Program-made: the position numbers and the translations under genes
NCBI RefSeq assembly: GCF_900142775.1
Contig: NZ_FRCC01000001.1
Location: 434,001-498,000, forward strand
DNA: 64,000 nucleotides
Direction: 5' to 3'
Source: Flavobacterium flevense
GTDB lineage: Bacteria > Bacteroidota > Bacteroidia > Flavobacteriales > Flavobacteriaceae
In this document: positions 23,921 through 28,145 of the stretch, piece by piece
How the letters are laid out: the number at the start of each line of letters is the position of its first letter
How positions within the stretch are numbered: position 1 is the stretch's first letter
The notes under the pieces: model-generated
Told to the model about the DNA's origin: nothing
Database searches by the model: none
Seen by the model: the letters and a program-made list of their open reading frames with translations, nothing else

Positions 23921-25009
23921 ATGAATACAGATACAGCCATCAGAGACGTCAAATTATACAAGGCTTCCACAACACTAAAAAAACCAATCTCGGATGCCAC
24001 ACACACGCTAACCGAAATCGCTTTTATCGTCATGCGAATCCAACTGGAAAACGGAGTCATTGGCGAATCCTATTTGTTGTCTTTTCAATATTCTCCTAAT
24101 GCGATTGTTGGTGCATTAAAAGATATCATTCCGGTTATCAAAGGATATAAAGCCAATGAAACTGCGGCAGTTTACCAAAAACTGGATGAATTAGCCGAAT
24201 ATTTTGGAAACCAGGGCGTATTGCGTTGGGCACAAGCTGCTATCAATATTGCCATGTGGGATGCCTGGGGAAAAACTTTGGGACAACCTATTCATAAAAT
24301 CCTTGGCACACACAAAGAAAAAGTATCCATTTACGGAAGCGGCGGTTGGATTTCCTATTCTATTGACGAATTGATTGAAGAAGTGACCAATTATGCCGAT
24401 AGAGGTTTCAAAGCCGTAAAAATAAAAGTAGGTTCGCCAAAAGTCAGCACCGATGTGGAGCGTTTGCGTTTAGTGCGTGAAGCCGTGGGCGACAAAGTCG
24501 ATATTATGATGGATGCCAATCAGGGAATGGATTTGCCATCGGCAATGAAATTAGCACGAGAAGCCCGGGATTTAAACATCAACTGGTTTGAAGAACCCAT
24601 CCATCACCAAAATTTCCAGGGTTACGAAATCCTGAAAAACCAAACCGGAATTTCACTCGCTATGGGAGAAAGAGAATTTGATACTTTACCGCTTAGAGAA
24701 TTAGCCACCAGAAATGCTCTGGACATTTGGCAACCCGATATTTTGAGAATTGGTGGTGTCGAAGCCTGGCGCGAAAGTGCGGCTTTGGCAAAAAGTTTCC
24801 ACCTGCCTGTGCTCCCGCATTATTATAAAGATTATGATGTTCCGTTGTTGTGTACCATTTCAAATGGCGTGGGCGTGGAATCTTTTGACTGGGTCGATCC
24901 CTTAATTGACAATCCTATGGTTATTCAGGATGGTTTTGCAAAACCACACGATTTACCAGGCTGGGGATTCAGTTTTATCGATGATCGAATGACTGAAATT
25001 AAGTTGTAA
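23921..25009 (+). CDS. Enolase-superfamily enzyme, mandelate racemase/muconate lactonizing type
   Basis: This 362-residue enzyme has the complete superfamily active site: the KxK pair in GFKAVKIKVGS (about residues 163-173), metal ligands in MMDANQG, NWFEEPIHH and AMGEREFD, and a C-terminal Asp/His pair in WQPDILRIGGVEAW and LPVLPHYYKDY. These features place it in the mandelate racemase subgroup, whose members abstract the alpha-proton of carboxylates and are often sugar-acid dehydratases. The substrate cannot be settled; a pectin-derived sugar acid is possible given the PL11 lyase 2.8 kb away. The divergent AraC gene and the symmetric operator suggest substrate-dependent induction. Confidence 0.88.
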   Translation: MNTDTAIRDVKLYKASTTLKKPISDATHTLTEIAFIVMRIQLENGVIGESYLLSFQYSPNAIVGALKDIIPVIKGYKANETAAVYQKLDELAEYFGNQGVLRWAQAAINIAMWDAWGKTLGQPIHKILGTHKEKVSIYGSGGWISYSIDELIEEVTNYADRGFKAVKIKVGSPKVSTDVERLRLVREAVGDKVDIMMDANQGMDLPSAMKLAREARDLNINWFEEPIHHQNFQGYEILKNQTGISLAMGEREFDTLPLRELATRNALDIWQPDILRIGGVEAWRESAALAKSFHLPVLPHYYKDYDVPLLCTISNGVGVESFDWVDPLIDNPMVIQDGFAKPHDLPGWGFSFIDDRMTEIKL

Positions 25010-25108: not shown

Positions 25109-25163
25109 AAAATAGTTTAAAATTTGAAGTAGTAATACTCCAAATTTTAAACTATTTTTTTTT
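25109..25163 (+). terminator. Hairpin terminator H1, left member of a near-identical pair
   Basis: AAATAGTTTAAAATTTG and CAAATTTTAAACTATTT form a long stem followed by a T run, ending the enolase-superfamily transcript. Bases 25110-25159 match 26825-26874 at 47 of 50 positions. Confidence 0.8.
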
Positions 25164-25275
25164 GGGGTTCCCTTGTCTCGTCAAAAAGACGAGACGAGGT
25201 CGGGCTATCCGCTATATCTTTGTCTCGTTTTAAAGAACGAGACAAAGGATGCCGCTGCTATCCCTAACCCACAAT
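25164..25275. repeat. Structured double-hairpin element
   Basis: Two hairpins lie in tandem: GTCTCGTC/GACGAGAC at 25175-25195, extended by CCTT/GAGG, and a perfect 12-base stem CTTTGTCTCGTT/AACGAGACAAAG at 25218-25247 with a 6-base loop. Both share the arm GTCTCGT. Between and after them are GGGCTATCCGC and GGATGCCGCTGCTATCCC. It resembles a dispersed Bacteroidota intergenic element I remember, but I cannot name it. No gene is supported in 25010-25525. Confidence 0.55.
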
Positions 25276-25525
25276 CCCGTTACTACAATAGCGTTGGATT
25301 TACCTCAACACCAAATAAAAAAAATACAAATCCAGCTGAAAACCTCAAAGGAAAATTATTGGGAAAGTAAACGAGTTGCAAAAATATTTTGTAGGATATT
25401 TTTATATATTTGAGAAATAAATAAAAAAGCTTGCTTATGGCACAAAGCCACCCAAAATTGGGCAGATTGGAGCCGTTTTATGGCACCTATGAACGAGTTG
25501 TACGACACTTTAGAAAAAATCATCG

Positions 25526-26521
25526 ATGATAAGAAAAAAACAGAGAGTACTTCAACATATAATGGAAGATGAATCATACGAAATTATAAAAAGACAAATT
25601 CCAAAACATTGGGTAATACGGGAATTTAATAGACCTGATTATGGTATCGACTTGGTCATTGAACTTTTTGAAATCGTAAATGAAAATGTTGCTGAAACAT
25701 TAGGAGAATTTATCTACATACAAGTAAAATCTGTTAAAGAATTAGACACTAAAGTTGAAAAAATATTTGAAGTAGGAAATGTTGCCAAAGGAGTTTGGAT
25801 TGAAAACAAAAAAACGTACACAAATGTTGAAGTTATTAAATTCCCATTTGATACAACTTCAATATATACATTCCAATCTTTGGGAGGAAGTGTTTCAGTA
25901 TTACTATTTGTAGTAGATATAAAAAATGAAGAAGTATATTTTGTTTCTCTTAATGATTATATTGATAAAATAATATTACCAAAAACACCAAATTATACAG
26001 AACAGAGTTCACTGACTATTACTATTCCAGTTTTAAATAAATTATCTAACCAAGACATAACAAATAATGCTCTTAAATTCTACGGAAAAAGAGCAAAATT
26101 ACTCGCTTTATTTTCAAAAGTTTCATACCAAAAGAATGAAATAAATCACTTATTTGGATTTAAAAATTATCCTGTATGGACTTATCGAGATGAAATTGAA
26201 AAAGACAAAAAATATGAAAAAGAAGAAGTAAAAACTCAACTATTATATTTTATATCACAGATAGATGAACTTGACATTTGGGAACATAATGAATGGATTG
26301 TATTACCAGAAGCAAAAAAAGATATTTTGATTATCAAAGATTTGTTAATAAAGGACGAAATAGAATGGAATGAAATAAAAAACAAAGTAATTATTCTTTG
26401 GCATCAATTAACTAATTTAGGAACAATGTACGAAGATATCTGTCGAGAATGGTATTTGCCAAAAATCATTGGTTTAATGACATCATATCCAACAATGCCT
26501 GAAATTATAAATGAAAAATAA
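25526..26521 (+). CDS. DUF4365 domain protein (restriction-endonuclease-like fold)
   Basis: This 331-residue protein matches DUF4365 over about residues 8-150: HIMEDESYEIIKRQIPKHWV, FNRPDYGIDLVIELFEI and GEFIYIQVKSVKELD give the E...D...ExxQxK pattern of PD-(D/E)XK nuclease folds. The C-terminal half is a helical region rich in lysine and glutamate with no motif I recognise. DUF4365 proteins are frequent in accessory and defence-gene neighbourhoods; a nuclease role is plausible but not shown. It stands alone inside a 1.7-kb segment bracketed by near-identical hairpins, and an attC-like palindrome starts within ten bases of its stop. Base composition is even more AT-rich than the neighbours. 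Confidence 0.8.
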   Translation: MIRKKQRVLQHIMEDESYEIIKRQIPKHWVIREFNRPDYGIDLVIELFEIVNENVAETLGEFIYIQVKSVKELDTKVEKIFEVGNVAKGVWIENKKTYTNVEVIKFPFDTTSIYTFQSLGGSVSVLLFVVDIKNEEVYFVSLNDYIDKIILPKTPNYTEQSSLTITIPVLNKLSNQDITNNALKFYGKRAKLLALFSKVSYQKNEINHLFGFKNYPVWTYRDEIEKDKKYEKEEVKTQLLYFISQIDELDIWEHNEWIVLPEAKKDILIIKDLLIKDEIEWNEIKNKVIILWHQLTNLGTMYEDICREWYLPKIIGLMTSYPTMPEIINEK

Positions 26522-26529
26522 AAGCGATC

Positions 26530-26662
26530 GCACAACAGGCGTTTGGCAAGATTGCGAATTTTGTAGTAAATTCACGTTCACGTTTCGTAAGAAATTTTTA
26601 TCTTTAACAGAAAATAATCGGTTCCGAAGCTCGCAACCTCGCCAAGCGCCGGAACGTTAGCA
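26530..26662. repeat. attC-like long imperfect palindrome
   Basis: GGCGTTTGGCAAGATTGCGA (26538-26557) pairs with TCGCAACCTCGCCAAGCGCC (26631-26650) at 17 of 20 positions. Outer flanks GCACAAC and GTTAGCA loosely resemble integron core sites RYYYAAC and GTTRRRY. The total of about 133 bases lies in the size range of long attC sites. No integrase is in the window. Confidence 0.5.
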
Positions 26663-26683
26663 ACTATATCATCAAATCTGCAC

Positions 26684-26806
26684 ATGAAGAAGAATCGGAT
26701 TTTAAAAATCATATTAATTGCTATTACAGGAACAGTCATCCCCACTGGTGCCCTTACTGATAAAACACAAAACGAAGCGTTTGTAACGCGACTCATTTGT
26801 ACTTAG
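26684..26806 (+). CDS. Small hypothetical protein, possible remnant with signal-like N-terminus
   Basis: This 40-codon frame opens 22 bases after the attC-like palindrome, where a cassette gene would begin. It encodes a basic start and a hydrophobic run (MKKNRILKIILIAITGTVIP) like a signal peptide, then TGALTDKTQNEAF and a stop. It may be the broken 5' end of a longer exported protein. Coding is uncertain because of its length and lack of recognisable relatives. Confidence 0.3.
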   Translation: MKKNRILKIILIAITGTVIPTGALTDKTQNEAFVTRLICT

Positions 26807-26824
26807 AGTTGATCCACTTGCTGT

Positions 26825-26878
26825 AAATAGTTTGAAATTTGAAGTAGCAACACTCCAAATTTTAAACTATTTTTGTTT
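26825..26878 (+). terminator. Hairpin terminator H2, right member of a near-identical pair
   Basis: The stem is the same as H1 (25109) with three substitutions in 50 bases, two of them in the loop. It is followed by TTTTTGTTTTT. Confidence 0.75.
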
Positions 26879-26911: not shown

Positions 26912-26971
26912 AAACCATTAAGTAAATTTAAATTGTAGCTTTCTTAAATCTCTTAATTTACTTAATGGTTT
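26912..26971 (+). repeat. 17-base perfect inverted repeat in the purT leader
   Basis: AAACCATTAAGTAAATT (26912-26928) and its exact complement (26955-26971) flank a 26-base AT-rich loop. The right arm ends 13 bases before the purT ATG. It may be a leader structure or a dispersed palindrome; no T run argues for termination. Confidence 0.65.
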
Positions 26972-26984
26972 AAAAAAATATAAA

Positions 26985-28145
26985 ATGGCAAAAATCCTTC
27001 TTCTCGGCTCAGGCGAACTTGGTAAAGAATTTGTAATCGCAGCACAACGCATCGGGCAAACTGTTATTGCGGTTGACAGTTATGAAAATGCTCCTGCTAT
27101 GCAAGTCGCTCATGATTTTGAAGTGATTAATATGTTAGATGGCGACGCTTTAGATAAAATTGTAGCCAAACACAATCCTGATTTTATCGTTCCTGAAATA
27201 GAAGCCATTAGAACCGAACGCTTTTACGATTACGAAAAACAAGGAATTACCGTAGTTCCATCGGCTAAAGCGGCCAACTTTACGATGAATCGCAAAGCCA
27301 TTCGTGACTTAGCTTCTAAAGAATTAGGATTAAAAACTGCTGAGTACCGCTATGCCACAACTGCCGAGGAATTACAAAAAGGCGTTCTCGAAGTTGGGAT
27401 TCCTTGTGTGGTAAAACCATTAATGTCTTCGTCAGGAAAAGGACAATCTACTATAAAAACCGAAGATGACATCGAGAAAGCATGGGAATATGCTGTTGCA
27501 GGTTCTCGTGGTGATGTTGTGGAAGTAATTGTAGAAGCTTTTGTAAAATTCAATTCGGAGATTACTTTATTGACCGTAACACAAAACAATAATCCTACTT
27601 TATTTTGTGCGCCAATTGGTCACAGACAAGAACGCGGCGATTATCAGGAAAGCTGGCAACCCGCCCGAATTTCTGATAAAGATTTATACGAAGCCCAAGA
27701 CATGGCCGAAAAAGTGACCGAAGCCTTAGGTGGAGCAGGACTTTTTGGTGTTGAATTTTTCATAGCCGATGATGGTGTTTATTTCTCTGAACTTTCTCCT
27801 CGCCCACACGATACCGGAATGGTAACATTGGCTGGAACCCAAAATTTTAATGAATTCGAATTGCATCTTAGAGCGATTTTAAGCTTACCCATTTTCGAAA
27901 TTACCTTAGAAAAAGCAGGTGCAAGTGCTGTAATCTTGGCTTCGGAAAACAGTTCAAATCCAACTTATACCGGAATTGAAAAAATTGCTGCCTTACCCAA
28001 AACTGATTTCAGAATCTTTGGCAAACCATCCTCAAGACCTTACCGAAGAATGGGTGTGGCTTTAACAAACGACACATTGGAAACGCCAATTGAAGAAGTT
28101 GTAGAAAAGGCGGTAAAAGCGGCGAGTTTAGTTACTGTAAAGTAA
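26985..28145 (+). CDS. purT: Formate-dependent phosphoribosylglycinamide formyltransferase
   Basis: PurT makes formyl-GAR from GAR, formate and ATP, the folate-independent route for the third step of purine synthesis. At 386 residues it has the family length. ATP-grasp features are visible: an N-terminal Rossmann-like part ([20 protein letters not shown]), [40 protein letters not shown] with the ATP lysine, [17 protein letters not shown], and [18 protein letters not shown] with metal-binding Glu residues. It is monocistronic, preceded by a 17-base inverted repeat. Confidence 0.96.

What the first reader, a model, noticed from the sequence alone, without database searches (positions are those of the whole stretch)
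25109..26874. Solitary DUF4365 module bracketed by a 50-base hairpin duplication
Bases 25110-25159 and 26825-26874 match at 47 of 50 positions, including the stem. The 1.7 kb between them holds a DUF4365 gene, an attC-like palindrome, a structured repeat and a small broken-looking frame, all absent from the expected simple order of an enolase-superfamily gene, a terminator, then purT. This looks like an insertion that duplicated a terminator.
Basis: partly seen in the sequence, partly recalled or inferred. Interest (0 to 1): 0.65.

Follow-up and report, generated by a model that had tools for sequence, protein, structure and literature searches.

The report
Integrase-less integron platform with DUF4365 cassette
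The stretch between two copies of a terminator hairpin is a small gene-capture platform whose cargo differs even between close relatives, and it belongs to an integron-like system whose recombinase lacks the domain by which integron integrases are normally recognised.

Summary
In detail: the hairpins match 47 of 50 (53 of 59) and occur only as this pair. A close relative (G073) has the predicted empty site: enolase-superfamily gene, one hairpin, purT. But the insert is not a solitary DUF4365 module. In order it holds a Flavo-1 repeat, a promoter-like box plus attI-like site (25396-25500), one gene cassette (25498-26656: DUF4365 gene plus attC), a truncated second cassette, then the second hairpin. 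In another close relative (G045) the same place holds the same head with entirely different cassettes; six shared heads were compared (one of doubtful orthology) and none shares its first cassette. The genome has about 17 such heads and one integrase gene, itself followed by attI and attC cassettes. attC lie downstream of and codirectional with integrases (104 of 110). The integrase lacks the IntI-specific insert and carries an N-terminal domain that may be HARP-like. Relatives occur across Bacteroidota and on a Chryseobacterium plasmid. It works like an integron but fails the standard integrase criterion. Recombination is inferred, not shown. In G045 the direct repeat also includes the enolase-gene 3' end; how a head first enters a new locus is open.

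The parts
23921..25009 (+). enolase-superfamily gene (MR_MLE), left flank
   Evidence: Pfam PF13378/PF02746; 99% identical protein in G045 and G073 at the same locus
25110..25159 (+). left hairpin copy (terminator-like)
25194..25274 (-). Flavo-1 RNA element, dispersed repeat (58 matches in this genome)
   Evidence: RF01705, 61.2 bits against gathering score 42; copy count
25396..25500 (+). attI-like head: TATATTTG box (Bacteroidota -7-like, motif recalled), structured spacer, core TATGAACGAGTT
   Evidence: model R2, 80 bits, built with this site among its 17 members; the same element lies directly 3' of integrase genes
25498..26656 (+). gene cassette 1 (between the two GTT crossover points)
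   Evidence: junctions located; cassette start against attC 5' flank 7 of 13, against the attC's own 3' end 2 of 13
25526..26521 (+). DUF4365 protein, 331 aa
   Evidence: PF14280 66 bits; 190 of 332 aligned columns identical to the G036 cassette protein
26529..26667 (+). attC-like site
   Evidence: model R1 146.4 bits (a member of the model); compensatory pairs; copies mostly 80-95% identical in related genomes
26684..26806 (+). 40-codon remnant of a second, truncated cassette without attC
   Evidence: read from the sequence; starts 28 bases after the attC GTT (26656); that it is a cassette remnant is inference
26825..26874 (+). right hairpin copy, the ancestral one before purT
   Evidence: single copy before purT in G073; a related hairpin before purT in G018
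26985..28145 (+). purT, right flank
   Evidence: PF02222/PF21244

Best explanation
The segment is one of about 17 heads of an integron-like gene-capture system, all but one without an integrase. A promoter-like box and an attI-like site (25396-25500) receive circular gene cassettes, each a gene or two plus an attC site, by recombination at G^TT. The DUF4365 gene is the resident cassette; a second cassette behind it has lost its attC. The likely recombinase is encoded once in the genome, about 180 kb upstream (G000:C14:277882-278925), directly followed by its own attI and cassettes, and would act in trans. It is a tyrosine recombinase with conserved catalytic residues but without the IntI-specific insert, and with an N-terminal extension that may be HARP-like. 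Shown by sequence: anatomy, site homology, codirectional order, cassette-specific junctions, cargo turnover at fixed heads. Inferred: catalysis, action in trans, expression from the head, DUF4365 function. The hairpin repeat comes from the older event that put the head there, which duplicated at least the enolase-gene 3' end plus terminator; its mechanism is not established.
For: Empty site in G073; same head with unrelated cassettes in G045. Six heads with an upstream flank shared with G045 or G073 (one, L190, of doubtful orthology): 0 of 6 share the DNA directly after attI. attC: 21 stem pairs, 14 with changes on both sides, 58 such cells, 0 of 500 shuffles. attC sites lie downstream of and codirectional with the integrase: 51 of 54 at 20 integrase loci (15 with any hit) and 53 of 56 at the 26 of 80 public-record loci with any hit. 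Cassette start matches its own attC's 5' flank at 8.67 of 13 positions against 5.33 for the attC's 3' end; 0 of 5000 permutations (52 rows, 3 of them duplicate places). attI directly after integrase genes. 17 heads in the genome. DUF4365 homologue is also a cassette in G036. Chryseobacterium plasmid NZ_CP041688.1 holds integrase, attI and four attC in this order.
Against: No recombination was observed. The window's own junction match is modest (7 of 13). The integrase lacks the insert described as essential for integron function (PMC8138268, passages). Several genomes with many sites show no integrase at the threshold used (E 1e-20): G009 (one contig, 10 attC, 6 distinct attI matches), G012 (19 attC, 9 distinct attI matches) and G050 (one contig, 15 attC; not scanned for attI). 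At L093 the three attC lie upstream on the other strand although 7.4 kb follow the integrase. Only 10 of 17 own heads have a recognised attC, and some heads have degenerate cores (L193, L194), so many may be relics.
Confidence: 0.87

Rival explanations
1. A stand-alone DUF4365 mobile module (transposon-like) inserted and duplicated a terminator as target site; the hairpins are its ends.
For: Hairpins flank the insert and G073 lacks it.
Against: G045 has the same flanks and head with other genes; its frames between the flanks are not DUF4365. The DUF4365 homologue in G036 follows an attC and has no such hairpin. No frame of 60 aa or more in the insert, apart from DUF4365, was recognised as a transposase (read by eye). 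A repeat that takes in a gene 3' end is longer than usual target duplications (recalled).
Confidence: 0.04
2. Ordinary integron cassettes stranded at secondary sites (CALIN/SALIN) by a classical IntI acting in trans; the Xer-like recombinase next to arrays does something else.
For: Sites have the R-box logic of attC; CALIN arrays without integrase are common in other bacteria (PMC8618304, passages).
Against: 0 of 60 relatives have a TIGR02249 match above cut-off. The insert-less recombinase is followed by codirectional attC at 14 of 20 loci, and five of the other six have only 81-1136 bases of contig left behind the gene. A shared, dedicated attI exists.
Confidence: 0.08
3. Inert dispersed repeats (terminators, palindromes) that mark variable intergenic regions; no site-specific recombination system.
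For: Flavo-1 is an ordinary dispersed repeat and the hairpin a local duplication.
Against: Orientation bias, cassette-specific junction matching and turnover at fixed heads are not expected of inert repeats.
Confidence: 0.03

Closest known systems
Integrons (IntI, attI, attC, gene cassettes)
   Same: Integrase gene, adjacent attI, codirectional array of gene-attC units, palindromic attC with AAC...GTT ends, cassette start complementary to its own attC 5' end, highly variable cargo.
   Different: Integrase lacks the IntI-specific insert and has an N-terminal extension; it reads in the same direction as the cassettes; attI follows the integrase 3' end; the spacer beside the basal pairs of the attC stem is 1 against 5 bases (columns); cassette-specific complementarity reaches well beyond the usual 7 bases (7 is recalled); many attI heads per genome.
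CALIN / SALIN (attC clusters or single attC without integrase)
   Same: The window has a cassette and attC without a nearby integrase.
   Different: It has its own attI-like head and promoter-like box; a second cassette is truncated; the usual CALIN definition needs two or more attC.
Xer / XerA-type tyrosine recombinases (NF040815, PDB 5hxy)
   Same: Best or near-best family for the recombinase; one of six (L078) passes the NF040815 cut-off, a model whose title reads 'site-specific tyrosine recombinase/integron integrase'; 5hxy is the best structure by profile.
   Different: Adjacent attI and attC arrays, N-terminal extension, many genomic heads.
DUF4365 (PF14280)
   Same: Domain over cut-off.
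   Different: Here a cassette cargo; function unknown. The GID...QVK pattern suggests a PD-(D/E)XK-like nuclease (recalled, not tested).

Membership tests
Integron | Integrase with the IntI-specific additional domain | tested here: not met
   0 of 60 relatives over the TIGR02249 cut-off; six proteins 198-214 bits against 265; against IntI4 (2a3v) 19 residues stand where IntI4 has 61; K..R to HxLRH spacing 63-73 aa in 73 of 80 public-record loci, 7 not measured, against 107 counted by hand on the 2a3v alignment
Integron | Catalytic residues of a tyrosine recombinase | tested here: met
   R204, K229, H294, R297, Y329 invariant and H320 at 90% or more in 11 integrases; PF00589 in 4 of 4 scanned
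Integron | attI next to the integrase gene | tested here: met
   attI motif or model directly after integrase stop codons; own genome L094:8927-9034. Not every integrase locus has a match to the model (it is built from one attI type)
Integron | Array of codirectional gene-attC cassettes | tested here: met
   51 of 54 and 53 of 56 attC downstream on the integrase strand
Integron | attC with R boxes and conserved folded structure | tested here: met
   AAC/GTT helix 97.1% of cells paired; 89.3% of all cells paired against 79.7% shuffled
Integron | Cassette promoter Pc at attI | tested here: inconclusive
   a TATATTTG-like box precedes the aligned attI sites, with variants; read as a Bacteroidota -7 box from recalled consensus only
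Integron | Integrase-mediated attC x attI recombination | not testable with these tools
   only comparative evidence: 0 of 6 shared heads keep the first cassette
CALIN | At least two attC less than 4 kb apart without an integrase | tested here: not met
   one attC in the window (its opposite-strand echo left out); another integrase-less head of the genome (L060) has three
Flavo-1 RNA (RF01705) | Score over gathering threshold | tested here: met
   61.2 bits against 42
DUF4365 (PF14280) | Score over gathering threshold | tested here: met
   66 bits against 24.3
HARP domain (PF07443), for the integrase N-terminus | Sequence or fold match | tested here: inconclusive
   Pfam HARP in 3 of 24 members, best E 7.1e-6, DUF5710 in 11 of 24, best 5.1e-4; top PDB profile hit 4o66, E 0.048; Foldseek rank 1 is 4o66 but at E 0.68; 4o66 is not among the 50 entries shown by VIA, whose best is Z 4.2 to aIF1

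The most novel reading that the evidence does not exclude
Bacteroidota carry a separate integron lineage: a HARP-domain tyrosine recombinase without the IntI insert recombines folded attC sites, the HARP-like domain replacing the IntI domain in recognising folded single strands, and one integrase serves many attI heads spread over the chromosome (a distributed integron) and on plasmids.
Probability: 0.5. Interest if true: 0.92.

Novelty: new variant of a known kind. Interest (0 to 1): 0.8.

Why it matters
[quoted passage not shown] If the present reading is right, gene cassettes are common in Flavobacterium-like genomes (attC in 36 of 60 relatives) and escape notice because the integrase lacks the expected domain. 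That makes two questions testable: is the IntI domain needed for attC recombination, and can one integrase serve many dispersed attI heads? It also gives a way to find variable cargo genes, and a plasmid carrier is at hand.

Tried and rejected
Solitary DUF4365 module: rejected by G045 and G036. PADLOC: one weak match, E 0.11. Hairpin as a general end of heads: not found in G036 or in 15 other loci with own heads (best E 0.014). Flavo-1 as part of the machinery: it lies just upstream of five heads or integrases (window, L101, L083, L088, L061) among about 22 heads in the scanned loci by my own count, but the genome has 58 matches, so I keep it as a side note. Whole-integrase structure from a single sequence: pLDDT 37, not used. 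VIA-align of the N-terminal domain: no Z of 5 or more; the 50 entries shown do not include 4o66. The RNA family scan gave no attC family at gathering score. DNA folding of the 150 bases around the attC was not better than shuffles (z -0.4 and -1.5); the case rests on compensatory changes instead. Two more distant relatives with the enolase gene (71%, G161 and G226) had no purT match within the 11 kb fetched, so they say nothing on the site. Paper searches for a published account of this system (also 23 and 112 on Flavo-1 and HARP) listed none that I could recognise; the library holds open-licence papers only, and papers not named with passages were seen only in the listing. PMC8565304 was seen only as one reference-list passage and has no bearing.

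Rows kept, dropped or left out: of the matches, the 20 loci were picked among the strongest; G003, G030 and G037 had comparable matches and were not fetched. One search counts 52 cassettes, of which L065/L077 (twice) and L067/L078 (once) are the same place; rows where an undetected site probably lies in between were kept. One search dropped 1 and 3 same-place opposite-strand echoes; one search also covered five sources that are not integrase loci. In one search the own genome has 19 matches, 2 of them echoes; G009 and G012 have 9 and 12 matches with 3 echoes each. Counts are limited to 54 scored candidates per genome, so 53 in G008 may be a lower bound. One search kept the best 80 of at least 590 loci. 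The L190/L225 pair is of doubtful orthology, as L190's flank also matches other heads. The shuffles were of single letters.

Full report
CHECK OF THE OBSERVATION. Genome-wide they are the only strong copies. The structured repeat is Rfam Flavo-1 at 25194-25274 on the minus strand, the gene is DUF4365, and the palindrome at 26529-26667 is attC-like.

EMPTY AND ALTERNATIVE SITES. Searching 249 genomes of the genus with the enolase-superfamily protein gave two close relatives with 99% identical proteins, and two at 71% that are uninformative here. In G045 the locus holds a half hairpin, Flavo-1, an attI-like site, two short genes (187 and 123 aa), an attC, a 243-aa gene, and an intact hairpin before purT. 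So the same place carries entirely different genes. The right flank in G045 also holds a decayed copy of the end of the enolase-superfamily gene (score 27 against the last 70 bases before the hairpin; 2000 single-letter shuffles reached at most 20.5), so the direct repeat around the insert takes in a gene end plus terminator. The right hairpin is the ancestral one: G018 has a related hairpin before purT too.

THE attC FAMILY. The window's palindrome recurs, mostly at 80-95% identity, across the genus, in same-strand clusters with genes between copies. On 34 aligned members, 21 stem pairs form in 89.3% of cells against 79.7% in shuffles; 14 pairs have changes on both sides (58 cells), each measure beyond all 500 shuffles, and sliding the partner by 1 to 3 columns drops pairing to 26-40%. 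A covariance model finds the site in 36 of 60 relatives, 9 times in this genome and at least 53 times in one other.

INTEGRASE, attI AND ORDER. The integron-integrase model TIGR02249 finds no match over its cut-off in 60 relatives. Its strongest sub-threshold matches are to a tyrosine recombinase, mostly of about 350 residues, hit in two pieces. At the 20 integrase loci fetched, 51 of 54 attC sites lie downstream on the integrase strand; 14 of 20 loci have at least one, five have only 81-1136 bases left behind the gene, and at one (L093) the three attC lie upstream on the other strand. Among 80 public-record loci found with an alignment of the integrases, 26 have attC matches and 53 of 56 sites lie downstream on the same strand; loci with such sites include Flavobacterium aciduliphilum, F. 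enshiense, Algoriphagus ornithinivorans, Arundinibacter roseus and Zunongwangia mangrovi. Shortly after many integrase stop codons comes a conserved element ending in TATRWACNAGTTR. The same element stands at 25396-25500 in the window, 80 bits by its model, of which it is a member. This genome has 17 such heads (19 matches less 2 echoes), some with degenerate cores, and one integrase gene at the threshold used. Of the 17, 10 have a recognised codirectional attC: window, L094, the first L060 head, L059 (damaged attC), and six of the twelve in L188-L199.

CASSETTE JUNCTIONS. In an integron the cassette's attC 5' end is complementary to the cassette's own start, not to the sequence that follows it in the array (recalled). 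Over 52 cassettes (3 duplicate places) the 13 bases after GTT match the cassette start at 8.67 positions and the attC's own 3' end at 5.33, the permutation mean being 5.15 (0 of 5000 permutations reached the observed sum). Of the 49 with both values, 38 favour the start, 3 tie, 8 do not. The window scores 7 against 2. The cassette therefore runs from 25498 to 26656, and the 40-codon frame after it looks like the start of a next cassette that lost its attC.

TURNOVER. Twelve attI matches each were found in G045 and G073. Six heads of this genome have an upstream flank shared with one of them to within about a dozen bases of attI (80-95% identical; the L190 pair is of doubtful orthology); none of the six shares the DNA directly after attI, though one pair matches again at the far host flank and two share only pieces of 36 and 67 bases further on. 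The DUF4365 protein has one close homologue among 395 genomes of the order (58%), in G036 of another family, where it follows an attC. A 222-aa cassette of this genome's own integron also has a homologue close by in G036 (87 of 223 aligned columns identical). A Chryseobacterium plasmid (NZ_CP041688.1) holds an integrase 69% identical to this genome's, an attI and four codirectional attC; a second Chryseobacterium plasmid has integrase and attI but no recognised attC in the 19 kb fetched.

THE RECOMBINASE. By profile it aligns with archaeal XerA in one stretch, but with IntI4 in two, with 19 residues where IntI4 has 61. The spacing between the catalytic lysine motif and HxLRH is 63-73 residues in the 73 of 80 public-record loci that could be measured, against 107 in IntI4 (counted by hand). 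One of six scanned integrases passes NF040815, an XerA-type model whose title also says 'integron integrase'. The N-terminal extension of about 70 residues gave no Pfam match in the whole-protein scans apart from one sub-cut-off overlap. Searched alone it gives weak but converging hits to the HARP domain: Pfam HARP in 3 of 24 members (best 7.1e-6), top PDB profile hit the SMARCAL1 HARP domain at E 0.048, Foldseek rank one the same entry but at E 0.68. VIA-align shows nothing above Z 4.2 and its 50 rows do not list that entry. I treat HARP as a lead. HARP domains bind structured DNA (recalled), which would suit a recombinase of folded attC.

WHAT IS KNOWN. [quoted passage not shown] An earlier survey that required the additional domain lists the Bacteroidetes/Chlorobi group among intI carriers (PMC2426708, passages). 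[quoted passage not shown] Other papers list Bacteroidota among phyla with integrons (PMC8618304, passages; PMC9668308, passages). My searches listed no paper that I could recognise as describing this system; closed-access papers are not in the library.

VERDICT. It works like an integron head with an exchangeable DUF4365 cassette; by the standard integrase criterion the system is not a member of the integron family as defined, hence 'new variant of a known kind'. Weak points: no recombination shown, some genomes with many sites but no recognised integrase, modest junction match in the window, unknown origin of the hairpin repeat.

Noticed in passing
G000 contigs C9, C10, C11, C13, C17, C18, C19, C24 (L188-L199, L059, L060): 15 further integrase-less attI heads with variable small genes behind them; some cargo looks defence-like by eye (a DUF262-like start, a long TIR-like protein); only a few of these cargo genes were scanned for families (L059, L060).
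   Followed up: partly
L094:9773-10462: NERD nuclease-domain protein (PF08378) as the second cassette of the genome's own integrase-bearing array.
   Followed up: partly
L083:6130-6204, L088:6481-6561, L101:5588-5668, L061:3926-4001, window 25194-25274: Flavo-1 lies on the opposite strand just upstream of integrases or attI heads in five loci, although it is a dispersed repeat with 58 matches here.
   Followed up: partly
G009, G012, G050: Many attC (10, 19, 15) but no integrase hit at E 1e-20; G009 and G050 are single-contig assemblies. How these arrays move is unexplained.
   Followed up: no
L076:3268-5010, L077:6691-8349, L172: Long integrases (about 550-580 aa) whose N-terminus seems to hold several repeats of the HARP-like motif (by eye).
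   Followed up: no
window 25310-25395; L059 about 6310-6226; L101 about 5555-5490: A decayed shared stretch (KELEIQLETL... in L059) sits just before the promoter-like box of three heads, perhaps the end of a gene that once preceded attI (read by eye).
   Followed up: no
window 26912-26971: Perfect 17-base inverted repeat just before purT, not seen by eye in the G073 sequence there.
   Followed up: no
L094:13691-13761: A tRNA gene lies about 2.2 kb beyond the last recognised attC of the genome's own integron.
   Followed up: no
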